From Actinomycetospora corticicola (lineage in GTDB: Bacteria; Actinomycetota; Actinomycetes; Mycobacteriales; Pseudonocardiaceae), in contig NZ_JACCBN010000001.1 in NCBI RefSeq assembly GCF_013409505.1, positions 2,666,001 to 2,730,000 on the forward strand: 64,000 nucleotides of DNA, in the 5' to 3' direction. Below, one piece after another: positions 50,253-54,608 of this stretch (the stretch's first letter is position 1; each line of letters starts with the position of its first letter). The translations under genes and the position numbers were made by a program. Under the pieces are notes generated by a model that was not told where the DNA came from, made no database searches, and saw nothing but the letters and a program-made list of their open reading frames with translations.

Positions 50253-51518
50253 TCAGCCGGTGGCGATGTCGCCGGTGGTGAGCGTCCCGGTGACGGTGCT
50301 CCCGCCGATCTGCACGCTGACCTGGTCCCTCCCGCCGGCCCGGTCGACCACGGTCATCGTGAACGGCACGACCTGGCCGCGGCTGGTGACCGCGGTGCCG
50401 GAGACGGTGCTGCCCGTCGCGGTCCTGGTGACCTGGGTGACGGTGCGGGAGCTCGCGGTGGTGTCGGCGCCGCCGCCGGCGAGCGCGAACTTGCCGGACG
50501 GCTGCCCGGCGGCGGTGGCCCGGGCGTCGACCGAGATCGAGAACCGCTGCCCGTCGATGGTGGTGAGGGTGCCGCCGCCCCTCACCGTCACGGCCCCCGC
50601 GACCGGCGCGGTGTAGGAGATGGTCGCGCTGCCTGCCGTGTTGCCGGCCGCGAGGCTCGACGTCCCTCCGGGCAGTGCCGAGCTCGTGCCGCCGGCACCT
50701 CCGCCGCCGCTGCCGTTGCTCGGATTGATGGAGCCACCGCCGCCGCCGGCGAGGCCGCCGCCCCCACCGCCGGACGCGTTGTCGATGATTTTCGGGTTCG
50801 GGGTGAACTGACCGTCGCCGCCGTCGCGGCCGTCGCCGGCTCCGACCGCGCCGCCCCCCACCCCGAACCGGTCCCCCGGTCCGGGTTGGCCGGCGTCGCC
50901 TCCCGCGGGGCTCGAACCTCGATCGCCCGACGGCGCACCGCCACCGGCGCCGGCGAGCGCGAGCAGCGACGAACCCGACGAGAGCGCGGTCCCGCCTCCG
51001 CCCCCACCCCCGCTTCCCTGCACCTGTCCGACCCGCGTCGGCGCATCGGCGGTCGACCCGGCACCTCCGCGGCCCTCCCCGGTCCCGCCGGTGCCCGGCG
51101 TCGGGGCAGCGCCAGAGCCCTCGACGCCGTTCTGGCCGTCGCCGCCCCGGGCCCCCACCGACAGAGCCAAGGGGGATCCGGTGACCGACAGCGCCCCGGT
51201 GATCACCGCCCCGCGCCCTCCGGTCCCGCCCGGGGTGATGTCCCGAGCGCCCGGGCCGTTGCCGCTCGGTACGGACTGGGCGCCGCCGTTGCCGCCCCCA
51301 CCGCCCGCGAGGGTCACCTGGACGGTCTGCACGCCGGCGGGCGGCGTGACGGTGTAGGTCCCGGGACCGTAGGTACACGTGACCGTGCTCCCCGCCTGTG
51401 CGCAGTTCGACGGCAACGCCGCCGTCGCCGCCGGCGCGACGAGCGCCGCCCCACCGACCGTCAGCGCGCCCGCCAACACGGCTGCCAGCACGGACCCATG
51501 ACCCACGACCACAACCAC
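50253..51518 (-). CDS. Secreted glycine-rich surface protein
   Basis: A 421-residue protein. The signal peptide at 1-34 is hydrophobic with AxA-type cleavage (VGGAALVAPAATAA). The next Cys pair (SNCAQAGSTVTCTYG) leads to PAGVQTVQVTLAGGGGG and a Gly-rich middle of about 200 residues (GGTGGRGAVITGALSVTGSP, ASGGGGGGLAGGGGG). The C-terminus is beta-rich (GAVTVRGGGTLTTIDGQRFS). Such proteins are found on cell surfaces; there is no LPXTG or anchor here. Function unknown. GTG 51518 follows AGGCAGGGAC. Confidence 0.8.
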   Translation of the reverse strand: MVVVVGHGSVLAAVLAGALTVGGAALVAPAATAALPSNCAQAGSTVTCTYGPGTYTVTPPAGVQTVQVTLAGGGGGNGGAQSVPSGNGPGARDITPGGTGGRGAVITGALSVTGSPLALSVGARGGDGQNGVEGSGAAPTPGTGGTGEGRGGAGSTADAPTRVGQVQGSGGGGGGGTALSSGSSLLALAGAGGGAPSGDRGSSPAGGDAGQPGPGDRFGVGGGAVGAGDGRDGGDGQFTPNPKIIDNASGGGGGGLAGGGGGSINPSNGSGGGGAGGTSSALPGGTSSLAAGNTAGSATISYTAPVAGAVTVRGGGTLTTIDGQRFSISVDARATAAGQPSGKFALAGGGADTTASSRTVTQVTRTATGSTVSGTAVTSRGQVVPFTMTVVDRAGGRDQVSVQIGGSTVTGTLTTGDIATG

Positions 51519-51678
51519 GTCCCTGCCTCTGTACGGGTGAACCGCGGCGGACGCTAACTGGCACGCCGCGGCAGCAACCTGGGTAAAACCCCTAGGTCCG
51601 CCCGGGTGGTCGCTCCGGGACGACGGGATGTCCGGGAGCAGCGCCTCGTCGTCGTCCCGGTCCGGCCCGGCCGGTCAC

Positions 51679-51838
51679 GTCCGCACCGGGACGATCGGCG
51701 TCAACCGCTACGACATCGACCTCGGGGCCCCTTCGCCGGGATGAAGGACTCCGGGATCGCTCGTGAGCTCGGGCCGGAAAGATCAACAACTACCTCGAGC
51801 ACACGTCGATCTACGCCCCGAGCAGCTACCTGCGCTGA
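51679..51838 (+). pseudogene. Aldehyde dehydrogenase C-terminal relic, two frameshifts
   Basis: Reading through three frames gives VRTGTIGVNRYDIDLGA, then FAGMKDSGIARELGPE, then KINNYLEHTSIYAPSSYLR followed by TGA, unmistakably the C-terminal end of an ALDH. Each junction needs one missing base, near 51729-51731 (in GGGGCCCC) and near 51778-51781 (in GGAAAG). The upstream 430 residues are gone. It is of a different ALDH subfamily from the gene at 43987. The rest of the 51519-52087 gap holds a hairpin and the mosB promoter area; I see no other gene. Confidence 0.8.
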
Positions 51839-51845
51839 TCGGCCT

Positions 51846-51884
51846 TCCCGACGACGGGTCCGCCCGGCGGACCCGTCGTCGGGA
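51846..51884. terminator. Perfect 19-bp palindromic hairpin upstream of mosB
   Basis: Arms TCCCGACGACGGGTCCGCC and its exact complement flank a single central C. Only slightly different from the hairpin at 53705-53745. It follows the ALDH relic, so it is probably that lost gene's terminator. Confidence 0.65.
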
Positions 51885-52087
51885 CCGTGTCACCGAGATC
51901 ACCCGGTCGGACCTCGGTCCCGTCGACGCGGAGCCACGTACGGGAGCCGACCGATCCTGCGGCCGACCGGACGAACCCCGACCGCAGACGGGCGTCGGTG
52001 CTGGTCAGCGAGCTGTGGCGATGCTCGGTTGTACGCCGCTAGATTCGCGCCCGCCCTCGACGATCACGGGGGCGGAGAGGAACCGTC

Positions 52088-52900
52088 GTGACCGCCCCGA
52101 CCAGCAGTGACCTGGCGTCGCTGCTCCGGACCCGCTCGTACGACGACGCCGCGCTGGCCGCGGCGAGCGTCGACGCCCCCGACCACGCCGTGCTGCCCGA
52201 GGCCACCGTGGTGAAGGTGGGCGGCCAGAGCCTGATGGACCGGGGCGCCGACGCGGTGCTCCCCGTCGTCGAGGAGCTGCTGGCGGCCCGGGGGCAGCAC
52301 CAGCTGCTCATCGGCACCGGCGGCGGCACGCGCGCCCGGCACGCCTACTCCCTCGCCGCCGAGCTCGGCCTCCCGACCGGTGTGCTGAGCGACGTCGGCT
52401 CCGCGGTCGCCGGCCAGAACGCCACGATGCTGGGCTACCTGCTGGCCCGCCACGGCATCCCGGTCGTCGCGCCGAACGCCTTCGCCTCGCTCCCCCTGCA
52501 GGTCGCCGAGGTCGGCGCCGCGATCTTCGCCGGCATGCCCCCCTACGGCATGTGGCAGCGCGTGCCCGGCGAGGGCGTGATCCCGCCCTACCGCACCGAC
52601 GCCGGCTGCTTCCTGGTCGCCGAGACCTACGGCTGCAAGCAGATGATCTACATCAAGGACGAGGACGGCCTGTTCACGGCCAACCCGAAGAACGACTCCT
52701 CGGCCACCTTCATCCCCGAGATCACCGTCGACGAGCTGCTCGCCCGCGACCTGCCCGACCTCGTGCTGGAGCGCGGCATGCTCGAGCTGCTGCGCGACGC
52801 GCGCCGCGTGCGGTCCGTCCAGGTGATCAACGGGCTCGTGCCCGGCCGGATCACCGCCGCCCTCGCCGGCGAGCACGTCGGCACCATCATCTCGGCGTAG
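52088..52900 (+). CDS. mosB: Molybdenum storage protein beta-type subunit
   Basis: A 270-residue amino-acid-kinase-fold protein, the length I recall for Azotobacter MosB. It matches MosB throughout: LPEATVVKVGGQSLMDRGAD, LLIGTGGGTRARHAYSLAAE, FAGMPPYGMWQ, GEGVIPPYRTDAGCFLVAE, GCKQMIYIKDEDGLFTANPK, VINGLVPGRITAALAGEHVG. The ATP-contacting Lys (VVKVGG) and DGLFTANP loop are kept. In Azotobacter, MosA and MosB form a cage that packs polyoxomolybdate using ATP. GTG start follows GGAGAGGAA. mosA starts 11 bp after its stop. Confidence 0.88.
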   Translation: MTAPTSSDLASLLRTRSYDDAALAAASVDAPDHAVLPEATVVKVGGQSLMDRGADAVLPVVEELLAARGQHQLLIGTGGGTRARHAYSLAAELGLPTGVLSDVGSAVAGQNATMLGYLLARHGIPVVAPNAFASLPLQVAEVGAAIFAGMPPYGMWQRVPGEGVIPPYRTDAGCFLVAETYGCKQMIYIKDEDGLFTANPKNDSSATFIPEITVDELLARDLPDLVLERGMLELLRDARRVRSVQVINGLVPGRITAALAGEHVGTIISA

Positions 52901-52911
52901 CGGAGACCACC

Positions 52912-53700
52912 ATGAGCGACACCAAGGACGTCCCCTCGGCGCTGATGCGCCAGACCCTGCTCGACCGCGAGCTCGTCCGCTCCGCCACCGGGGTCGAGCA
53001 CGGCCCGGTCCGGCTGCTGCCCTGGCTCGACGTCGTCGTGCTCGGTGGCTCCACGATCATCGACGGCGGCCGCGACACGCTGCTCCCGGTCATCGACGAG
53101 ATCCGCTCGCTGCTCGGGTCCCGCCGGATGCTGATCCTCACCGGGGCCGGCGTCCGCGCCCGTCACGTGCTCGGCGTCGGGCTCGACCTCGGCCTGCCGA
53201 CCGGCGCGCTCGCCGGGCTCGCCGCCACGGAGGCCGAGCAGAACGGCCACCTGGTCGCGGCGCTCCTCGCGAGCGAGGGCGTCTCGTACCTGCCGCACGG
53301 CGCGGTCGCCGGTCAGCTCTCGGTGCACCTGGCCGCCGCCCCCGCCGTCGTCTCGAACGGCTACCCGCCCTACGGCGTGCACGAGTTCACCTCGCAGCAG
53401 ACCAAGCTGCCGCGCCACCGCGCCGACGCGGGTTCGCTGCTGCTCGCCGACGCCCTCGGCGCGCGCTCGGTCACCTACGTCCGCGACGCGGACGCGCTGT
53501 CCCGCTTCGCCGGGGCGGACCGGGTCGCGGCCAAGGAACTGCGGACCACCGACGCCGACCTGCCGCTCGACCGCATCGTCGGCGAACTGCTCGAGCACGC
53601 CAAGCACGTGCGGGAGGTGCGCGTCGTCGACGGCACCACCCCGGGCCAGATCGGCAGCGCGATGGCGGGCGAGCCGGCGGGCGTCACCGTCCACGCCTGA
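52912..53700 (+). CDS. mosA: Molybdenum storage protein alpha-type subunit, degenerate nucleotide site
   Basis: A 262-residue partner resembling MosA: QTLLDRELVRS, GPVRLLPWLDVVVLGG, LILTGAGVRARHVLGVGLDL, EAEQNGHLVAALLASEGVSY, YPPYGVHEF then PRHRADAGSLLLADALGA. The family Lys (VVKIGG) reads VVVLGG here, and the usual DG.YTADP loop is replaced by DADALSRFAGAD, so nucleotide turnover on this subunit is probably lost. The His of HEF, near the Azotobacter cluster-binding His, is kept. Likely a cage partner for mosB in the same operon. It is about 14 residues shorter than Azotobacter MosA. Confidence 0.84.
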   Translation: MSDTKDVPSALMRQTLLDRELVRSATGVEHGPVRLLPWLDVVVLGGSTIIDGGRDTLLPVIDEIRSLLGSRRMLILTGAGVRARHVLGVGLDLGLPTGALAGLAATEAEQNGHLVAALLASEGVSYLPHGAVAGQLSVHLAAAPAVVSNGYPPYGVHEFTSQQTKLPRHRADAGSLLLADALGARSVTYVRDADALSRFAGADRVAAKELRTTDADLPLDRIVGELLEHAKHVREVRVVDGTTPGQIGSAMAGEPAGVTVHA

Positions 53701-53704
53701 TCTC

Positions 53705-53745
53705 TTCCCGACGACGGGTCCGCGCGGCGGACCCGTCGTCGGGAA
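53705..53745. terminator. 19-bp hairpin after mosA
   Basis: Perfect arms TTCCCGACGACGGGTCCGC (53705-53723) and its complement (53727-53745) with loop GCG, starting 4 nt after the mosA stop. Confidence 0.8.
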
Positions 53746-53803
53746 CTGCGGCGGAGTGCGTCACCCGTGACGCACATCGCCGCACTCCCGCGCGGGCCGT
53801 GGA

Positions 53804-54286
53804 TCAGCCCTCGGAGGTGACCGGCCAGCACATCCGGACGGTCGTGCCCTGCTCACCGGCCTCGATCGAGCTGCGCTGGGCGAGGCGCCCGATGAGGTCG
53901 ATCCCGCGTCCCCGGAAGCCGGGGTCGCCGCGCGGCTTCCACACCCCGTTGTCGGAGACGAGCACGGAGACCCCGCCGCCACAGGCGCGGGGGCCGGCCA
54001 CGAGTCGCACGGCGCAGTCCCAGTCCGGGCAGGCGTGCTCCACGGCGTTCGTCACCGCCTCGTCGACGACCAGCAGGATCGACTCCGCGATCTCCTCGTC
54101 GATCTCGCCGCCGTCGAGCCACGCCCGCACCCGGCGGCGGAACGCGCGCACGGTGTCCGGGACCGCGTCGTGCCGCTCCTGCACGCCGTTCCACCCCGCC
54201 TGACCGGGGTCGGGCCAGCACACGCAGGCCGGACCCTCGGTGCTCGGCGCGTCGTCGGCGGCGCTCACACGCTCCCGCCGGTCCAT
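53804..54286 (-). CDS. RsbW-like anti-sigma-factor histidine-kinase-fold ATPase
   Basis: A 160-residue GHKL ATPase: N box LLVVDEAVTNAVEHACPDW, G1 VLVSDNGVWKPRGDPG, G2 FRGRGIDLIGRLA. Stand-alone proteins of this kind are Ser/Thr kinases acting on anti-sigma antagonists. An N-terminal segment of about 40 residues (PACVCWPDPGQAG) is not conserved. No sigma factor or antagonist gene is adjacent. Confidence 0.8.
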   Translation of the reverse strand: MDRRERVSAADDAPSTEGPACVCWPDPGQAGWNGVQERHDAVPDTVRAFRRRVRAWLDGGEIDEEIAESILLVVDEAVTNAVEHACPDWDCAVRLVAGPRACGGGVSVLVSDNGVWKPRGDPGFRGRGIDLIGRLAQRSSIEAGEQGTTVRMCWPVTSEG

Positions 54287-54404
54287 GCCGTGCACTCCGC
54301 CATGGTCCGTGGCTACCCGCAATCGGCTGTTCACACCGTTCTCCGGCGGTCGTCACGTCCGGGGTGGCGCAGGACTCGTCCTAGAGGAGGCCCCGACCGC
54401 GGGC

Positions 54405-54608
54405 GTTGGTGATCACCTGGGCGCGGTTCCGGGCGTCCTGCACGCCCGGCTGCGCCGCGTCGGGGACGACGCCGGCGTGGTGATCGACCGCGTGCCCGAC
54501 GGCGCCCGCCTGCTCCTCGACGGACAGGAGCTTCCGACGACGGGCCGGGGCACCATCACCGTCGACGTCCCCGCCGGGCCCGCCCACGACCTCGAGCTCG
54601 CGCCGTGA
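54405..54608 (+). pseudogene. Coding-like segment coupled to the SCO1 gene, no visible start
   Basis: In frame: VLHARLRRVGDDAGVVIDRV, PDGARLLLDGQELPTTGRGT, ITVDVPAGPAHDLELAP and a TGA that overlaps the SCO1 GTG (GTGA). The codon pattern looks real and the overlap is typical of an operon. However, no ATG/GTG/TTG lies in frame after the AGAGGAGG at 54382. It may be the 3' end of a truncated gene, or need a base correction. I do not recognise it. Confidence 0.4.

What the first reader, a model, noticed from the sequence alone, without database searches (positions are those of the whole stretch)
52088..53700. Molybdenum storage protein (MosA/MosB-like) pair in an actinobacterium
Both proteins align along their whole length with the Azotobacter MoSto subunits I recall, not with UMP kinase: PPYRTDAG, PHRADAG-like and EGVIPPYR stretches. 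The pair is an isolated operon between hairpins, with no nitrogenase or Mo-transport gene in view. A Mo or W store in a non-diazotrophic-looking actinomycete would be notable.
Basis: partly seen in the sequence, partly recalled or inferred. Interest (0 to 1): 0.7.

Follow-up and report, generated by a model that had tools for sequence, protein, structure and literature searches.

The report
Molybdenum storage cage in an actinobacterium
This bacterium carries the two genes of a protein cage that hoards molybdenum in a nitrogen-fixing relative-by-gene, yet no nitrogen-fixing genes were found in it, and one half of its cage lacks parts that hold the metal and the fuel molecule in the known version.

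Summary
Window 52088-52900 encodes a homologue of MoSto subunit beta (MosB; E 5.6e-108) and 52912-53700 one of subunit alpha (MosA; E 3.3e-71), in the Azotobacter gene order. A tree puts both outside bacterial UMP kinases (100/100), and the genome has its own pyrH. The host looks like an Actinomycetospora; 0 of 390 genomes of its family has a nitrogenase-component match above cut-off, while 45 of 390 have a relative of the pair. In 7 of 29 related actinobacterial loci molybdate-transport or TOBE-regulator genes lie nearby. It is not a plain copy: in this clade MosA lacks the two ligands of the covalent Mo8 cluster (positions 129 and 156; kept in 0 of 27, against Glu/Asp and His in 50 of 50 others) and the nucleotide-site Lys45 (0 of 27 against 50 of 50), and in Actinomycetospora the alpha nucleotide loop is lost; MosB's site and MosA His140 are kept. 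Best reading: a beta-driven molybdate or tungstate store serving molybdopterin enzymes, with different cage chemistry. Metal content and activity are untested.

The parts
52088..52900 (+). mosB-like gene, MoSto subunit beta homologue, 270 aa; keeps the nucleotide-site Lys (A. vinelandii beta Lys42), the loop KDEDGLFTANPK and Met149
52912..53700 (+). mosA-like gene, MoSto subunit alpha homologue, 262 aa; AlphaFold2 model matches MoSto alpha chains best
53038..53040 (+). MosA codon 43 (Val) where A. vinelandii alpha has Lys45 (nucleotide-site lysine column; role recalled for the kinase family)
   Evidence: codon place computed from the gene start
53293..53295 (+). MosA codon 128 (Pro) where A. 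vinelandii alpha has Glu129, a ligand of the covalent Mo8 cluster
   Evidence: ligand role from passages of PMC8154434
53326..53328 (+). MosA codon 139 (His), equivalent of alpha His140, ligand of the W3 cluster; kept
   Evidence: ligand role from passages of PMC8154434
53374..53376 (+). MosA codon 155 (Gly) where A. vinelandii alpha has His156, the other ligand of the covalent Mo8 cluster
   Evidence: ligand role from passages of PMC8154434
53482..53517 (+). degenerate alpha nucleotide loop (RDADALSRFAGA in place of ENVDGIYTADPNG)
51847..51883 (.). upstream hairpin, perhaps the terminator of whatever precedes
   Evidence: terminator role inferred
53707..53743 (.). downstream hairpin, one base different from the upstream one, probable operon terminator
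   Evidence: terminator role inferred
52040..52045 (+). TAGATT, promoter -10-like hexamer in a stretch largely conserved in five genomes (window, L004-L007; L007 differs by one base just before it)
   Evidence: promoter role inferred
52074..52082 (+). GGAGAGGAA ribosome-binding site of mosB, conserved in the same five genomes

Best explanation
The two genes encode an actinobacterial form of the molybdenum storage protein, expected to be an (alpha beta)3 cage. The beta subunit keeps the nucleotide site and is the likely motor: it binds ATP and molybdate (or tungstate) and pushes the oxyanion into the cage. The alpha subunit has become a wall that probably no longer uses ATP: it keeps the N-terminal arm residues and His140 but has lost the nucleotide-site lysine, the nucleotide loop and both ligands of the covalent Mo8 cluster. 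The cage should still collect Mo or W, but as different or fewer clusters, and feed molybdopterin enzymes rather than nitrogenase. Shown here: homology, tree, residues kept and lost, gene neighbours, no nitrogenase match. Inferred: hexamer, ATP-driven loading, metal, and the enzymes served.
For: MoSto chains are the best matches for both proteins: beta 5.6e-108 against 1.9e-08 for the best uridylate kinase; alpha 3.3e-71, and all 11 PDB sequences under E 0.001 are MoSto. The alpha model (pLDDT 81, pTM 0.81) matches MoSto first, 6rkd_A E 1.8e-28; the best non-MoSto fold is at 3.0e-08. Tree: 15 PyrH on one side, all 53 MoSto-type rows on the other, 100/100. MosB Lys42, Met149 and the loop residues K189, D190, E191, G193, L194, N198, P199, K200 are invariant in 77 of 77; MosA S13, Q18, T19, L20, D22 and His140 are invariant in 77 of 77. 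Among five close genomes NG86 omega is 0.12-0.20 for MosA and 0.07-0.16 for MosB. Molybdate-type transporter or TOBE-regulator genes lie nearby in 7 of 29 clade loci (334 kb) and, by the same queries, ModB-like genes in 6 of 51 other loci; none in 115.7 kb of control. All 18 genomes of the genus have molybdopterin enzyme genes; own genome 7 PF00384 and 12 PF20256 matches.
Against: The covalent Mo8 ligands and the alpha nucleotide site of the studied MoSto are missing, so capacity may be much lower. No transporter or Mo regulator is next to this locus. Only 9 of 18 genomes of the genus have the pair, and genomes with and without it have similar numbers of molybdopterin enzyme genes, so no enzyme class is seen to demand it. 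One further relative, L142, has Phe at 140. That beta is the motor and the alpha arm locks it is recalled from Bruenle et al. 2019, a paper not held here.
Confidence: 0.72

Rival explanations
1. The cage has been repurposed: it keeps the fold and the beta ATP site but handles another oxyanion (for example vanadate or phosphate), or is a molybdate buffer or sensor that holds few atoms, not a bulk store.
For: Mo8 ligands absent in 27 of 27 clade MosA, together with changes at beta 129 (Ala in 50 of 50 others, in 0 of 27 of the clade) and beta 132 (Ser in 49 of 50 others, in 1 of 27 of the clade).
Against: Molybdate-type transporter or TOBE-regulator genes adjoin the pair in 7 of 29 clade loci; His140, ligand of the W3 cluster, is kept in 27 of 27.
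Confidence: 0.17
2. Ordinary UMP kinase or another enzyme of the amino-acid-kinase family that happens to resemble MoSto.
For: Pfam AA_kinase matches; beta has a weak match to archaeal UMP kinase, 57 bits against a cut-off of 158. Azospirillum plasmid records name such genes uridine kinase or uridine monophosphate kinase.
Against: PDB matches and tree; a separate pyrH in the genome scores 285 bits, over its cut-off of 243.9; alpha lacks the nucleotide-site lysine.
Confidence: 0.03
3. Decaying relic: alpha is on the way to loss and the complex no longer works.
For: Graded loss of the alpha nucleotide loop, from intact in several MAG lineages through partial in Pseudonocardia to lost in Actinomycetospora; pair absent from 9 of 18 genomes of the genus, three of them under 90% complete; higher omega against the more distant L008 and L009.
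Against: Open frames and low omega for both genes among five close genomes; alpha arm residues invariant; beta sites intact.
Confidence: 0.08

Closest known systems
Molybdenum storage protein (MoSto, MosA/MosB) of Azotobacter vinelandii, PDB 2ogx, 4f6t, 6rkd
   Same: Two paralogous subunits in the same gene order, near whole-length alignment, beta nucleotide site, alpha arm residues, alpha His140
   Different: Alpha lacks Lys45, Glu129, His156 and the nucleotide loop; no nitrogenase-component match above cut-off in the host or its family
Bacterial and archaeal UMP kinase (PyrH)
   Same: Amino-acid-kinase fold
   Different: Bacterial PyrH form a separate clade (archaeal ones were not in the tree); the host has its own pyrH
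Mop/Tub TOBE-domain molbindins, for example Eubacterium limosum Tub (PMC11980592, passages)
   Same: Mo or W store, by proposed role
   Different: Different domain (TOBE); here TOBE domains were seen in neighbouring regulators and transporters of some relatives

Membership tests
MoSto (MosA/MosB) | Both subunits closest to MoSto chains over nearly their whole length | tested here: met
MoSto (MosA/MosB) | Tree position with MosA and MosB, apart from PyrH | tested here: met
   53 MoSto-type rows against 15 PyrH, 100/100; MosB one clade 100/99; MosA not resolved as one clade because L142 MosA falls nearer MosB (82/93)
MoSto (MosA/MosB) | Adjacent paired genes | tested here: met
MoSto (MosA/MosB) | Beta nucleotide-site residues (Lys42, loop) and Met149 | tested here: met
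   their roles are recalled, apart from the Kb42S entry title
MoSto (MosA/MosB) | Alpha Glu129 and His156, ligands of the covalent Mo8 cluster (PMC8154434 and PMC4504029, passages) | tested here: not met
   Pro and Gly in the window. A feature of the studied protein, not known to be needed for storage, so it lowers the claim of a standard MoSto, not that of family membership
MoSto (MosA/MosB) | Alpha nucleotide site (Lys45, DVDGxYTxDP-type loop) | tested here: not met
MoSto (MosA/MosB) | Alpha His140, ligand of the W3 cluster | tested here: met
MoSto (MosA/MosB) | (alpha beta)3 hexamer with ATP-dependent Mo or W loading | not testable with these tools
   needs purified protein
UMP kinase (PyrH) | Score over a UMP kinase equivalog cut-off | tested here: not met
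   first protein 57 bits against 158 (archaeal model) and 29.6 against 243.9 (bacterial model); second protein 17.5 against 158

The most novel reading that the evidence does not exclude
A subtype of MoSto in which one subunit is a dead kinase used only as wall and lid, the covalent Mo8 site is absent, and metal is held only at the threefold axis or as clusters not seen in Azotobacter, serving molybdopterin enzymes in a family without nitrogenase.
Probability: 0.4. Interest if true: 0.6.

Novelty: new variant of a known kind. Interest (0 to 1): 0.45.

Why it matters
In the passages seen here MoSto is described from Azotobacter vinelandii, as a protein of some N2-fixing bacteria (PMC9769095, PMC11980592), and one paper calls it without known homologues (PMC6448029, passage). 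A natural form without the Mo8 ligands and without the alpha nucleotide site, in a family where 0 of 390 genomes has a nitrogenase-component match above cut-off, would separate the parts needed for pumping from those for cluster building and suggests that Mo hoarding can also serve molybdopterin enzymes.

Tried and rejected
UMP kinase identity: rejected by tree and scores. A known riboswitch or other Rfam RNA near the genes: no match at E up to 1 in 50500-54500. A conserved operon partner across the clade: beyond mosB and mosA the clusters I read were wrong-frame copies, neighbours shared within a genus or sister group, or the mod/TOBE genes. Link between having the pair and having more molybdopterin enzyme genes in the genus: not seen; PF00384 matches average 6.4 in the 9 genomes with it and 7.3 in the 6 without it that are at least 90% complete, PF20256 matches 12.8 against 11.2 (counted by hand). 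First tree: its outgroup rows were taken as the longest frame; at least the pyrH row (L116) was a wrong frame and the others look so; replaced. A NifH family search of the own genome gave 6 short partial matches, best 30 bits, four over the cut-off by themselves, and it also matched in all 14 control genomes, so it does not tell nitrogenase from relatives; PF00148 was used instead. In one search, 102 of 390 genomes had weak partial matches under the family cut-off and 0 of 390 were over it. Structural second look by VIA-align: not available.

Rows and limits: one search found 355 relatives and kept the best 80, so counts lean to close relatives. Left out of the residue counts: L002 (same as the window), L013 and L031 (cut by contig ends), L021 and L032 (MosA frame broken). 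L017 and L022, and L018 and L019, are identical MosA rows, so the 27 are 25 distinct sequences. I assigned clades by hand after seeing the alignment; MosB alone, in the tree (27 clade rows, 90/88; 22 others, 99/94), gives the same split for the rows it held. L142 came later: it keeps Lys45 and the loop, lacks Glu129 and His156, and has Phe at 140. L029 and L143 hold the same MosA sequence.

Full report
What is there. Two ORFs, 52088-52900 and 52912-53700, lie 11 bases apart on the plus strand. Each has a ribosome-binding site readable in the sequence, GGAGAGGAA before the first and GGAG before the second. The first protein matches MoSto subunit beta (2ogx_B, E 5.6e-108, residues 5-270) and the second subunit alpha (6h6w_A, E 3.3e-71, residues 4-260). 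By tblastn, A. vinelandii MosB (L067) is 62% and its MosA 49% identical to the window proteins, in the same gene order. Two 37-base hairpins, 51847-51883 and 53707-53743, bound the operon.

Not UMP kinase. The genome has a separate pyrH at C1:2761988-2762680, 285 bits against a cut-off of 243.9, while the window proteins score far below UMP kinase cut-offs. In a 68-row tree 15 PyrH form one clade and all 53 MoSto-type proteins lie on the other side, 100/100. MosB is one clade, 100/99. MosA is not resolved as one clade: L142 MosA falls with MosB and three deep relatives (L140, L141) at 82/93. Archaeal UMP kinases, the better-scoring kind for the beta homologue, were not in the tree. The AlphaFold2 model of the alpha homologue (34-row alignment, pLDDT 81, pTM 0.81) has MoSto chains as its 15 best folds, alpha chains first (E 1.8e-28); the best other fold, an aspartate kinase, is at 3.0e-08.

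What differs from Azotobacter. Passages of PMC8154434 and PMC4504029 say that the Mo8 cluster is held by His156 and Glu129 of alpha, and PMC8154434 names HisA140 for the W3 cluster. In the window these are Gly, Pro and His. Among 77 full-length pairs (the 80 best of 355 relatives plus the window, less L013, L021, L031 and L032), the 27 of the actinobacterial clade all lack both Mo8 ligands, while all 50 others have His156 and Glu (47) or Asp (3) at 129; His140 is kept in 77 of 77. The Lys45 column is Lys in 50 of 50 others and in 0 of 27 of the clade; the matching MosB column is Lys in 82 of 82 rows. The alpha loop of the type DVDGxYTxDP is intact or nearly so in several Pseudonocardiales and Solirubrobacterales MAGs, partial in Pseudonocardia and lost in Actinomycetospora. 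L142, outside the 77, keeps Lys45 and the loop but lacks Glu129 and His156 and has Phe at 140. So lack of the Mo8 ligands reaches further than loss of the alpha nucleotide site, and whether the ligands were lost here or gained in the other clade is open. The other clade is mainly Proteobacteria, with three actinobacterial MAGs (L034, L035, L038; one named Acidimicrobiia) and one Chloroflexota MAG (L077).

Beta residues 129 and 132 also differ between the clades. PDB titles show variants made near these places: alpha H156A (6h6w), L131H (6h74) and Kb42S (6ris). The window thus carries a natural change at the position altered in 6h6w.

Is it alive? Among the window and L004-L007, NG86 omega is 0.12-0.20 for MosA and 0.07-0.16 for MosB. 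Against the more distant L008 and L009 it is 0.40-0.61 and 0.33-0.39; GC-rich third positions make these values rough. The last 50 or so bases before mosB, with TAGATT (TACATT in L007) and the ribosome-binding site, are largely conserved in the five genomes.

Context. The window locus has no Mo gene nearby. Neighbours with a Pfam match are a Na/H exchanger, a DUF4118 protein, a HATPase_c_2 protein, SCO1/SenC, an alpha-amylase and a metallo-beta-lactamase-fold protein, and tblastn with Mod and TOBE queries finds nothing in the 64 kb. In relatives it does: L014, L021, L023, L026 and L029 have molybdate-type transporter genes and a TOBE-HTH regulator, L032 and L039 the regulator alone, within the fetched flanks: 7 of 29 clade loci. 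Pfam and NCBIfam bear this out for the five loci scanned, L014, L023, L026, L029 and L039, though most NCBIfam scores lie below the curated cut-offs; ModB of L014 and L029 and ModA of L029 pass theirs. The solute-binding protein of L023 resembles tungstate WtpA more than ModA, below cut-off. L021, L023 and L026 are close kin, so independent cases are fewer than seven. Among the 51 other loci, ModB queries also hit in L034, L035, L037, L038, L070 and L079. Control: no hit in 115,720 bases of window and pyrH loci.

Distribution. 9 of 18 genomes of the genus, 45 of 390 of the family in 3 of 46 genera at E 1e-30 (in a few, such as G283 and G288, only a weaker, MosA-like match), and 5 of 396 sampled phylum genomes including the own one have a relative. 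The nitrogenase-component family PF00148 gives no match at E 0.001 in 18 genus genomes, and in 390 family genomes 102 weak partial matches and none over the cut-off. All 18 genus genomes have molybdopterin enzyme genes and TOBE domains.

How it most likely works. Recalled, not read: in A. vinelandii ATP and molybdate bind beta, the alpha N-terminal arm closes over them, and molybdate is driven inward past Met beta149. The window keeps the beta lysine, loop and Met149 and the alpha arm residues, so the pump could work from beta alone. With Mo8 ligands gone and His140 kept, I expect clusters on the threefold axis and non-covalent ones only. That metal binding to MoSto needs ATP hydrolysis and that it can take W is from PMC6448029 (passages).

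Literature. Library searches for molybdenum storage protein, MoSto, mosA with mosB, combinations with Pseudonocardia and Actinomycetospora, and molybdate pump listed no paper whose title or start of abstract describes an actinobacterial MoSto. Searches listed 30 of 475 and 15 of 61 papers, and the library lacks most subscription journals, so this does not prove novelty.

Noticed in passing
own genome C1:5876224-5877483, 5904457-5905842, 6156226-6157590 (outside the window): Molybdopterin oxidoreductase (PF00384) matches that read through exactly one TGA each, as do many in the other genomes of the genus: probable selenocysteine enzymes such as formate dehydrogenase.
   Followed up: no
L140 (G602) 966-2674 and L141 (G695) 830-1657: Deep MoSto-like proteins, 42-53% identical to MosB, in two other families of the phylum; L140 has two adjacent genes; all three group with MosB in the tree.
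   Followed up: partly
Azospirillum plasmid records H1-H8: MosB homologues at 60-62% identity are named uridine kinase or uridine monophosphate kinase in the records, probably misnamed.
   Followed up: no
L023 4128-5057, L026 724-1659: Solute-binding protein beside the mos pair resembles tungstate WtpA more than molybdate ModA in L023 (L026 has a 92% identical copy by tblastn), a hint that tungstate may be the cargo in that lineage.
   Followed up: no
window 51847-51883 and 53707-53743: Two nearly identical 37-base hairpins flank the operon and have no further copy in the window at up to 3 mismatches; a shared terminator type or a small duplicated element.
   Followed up: partly
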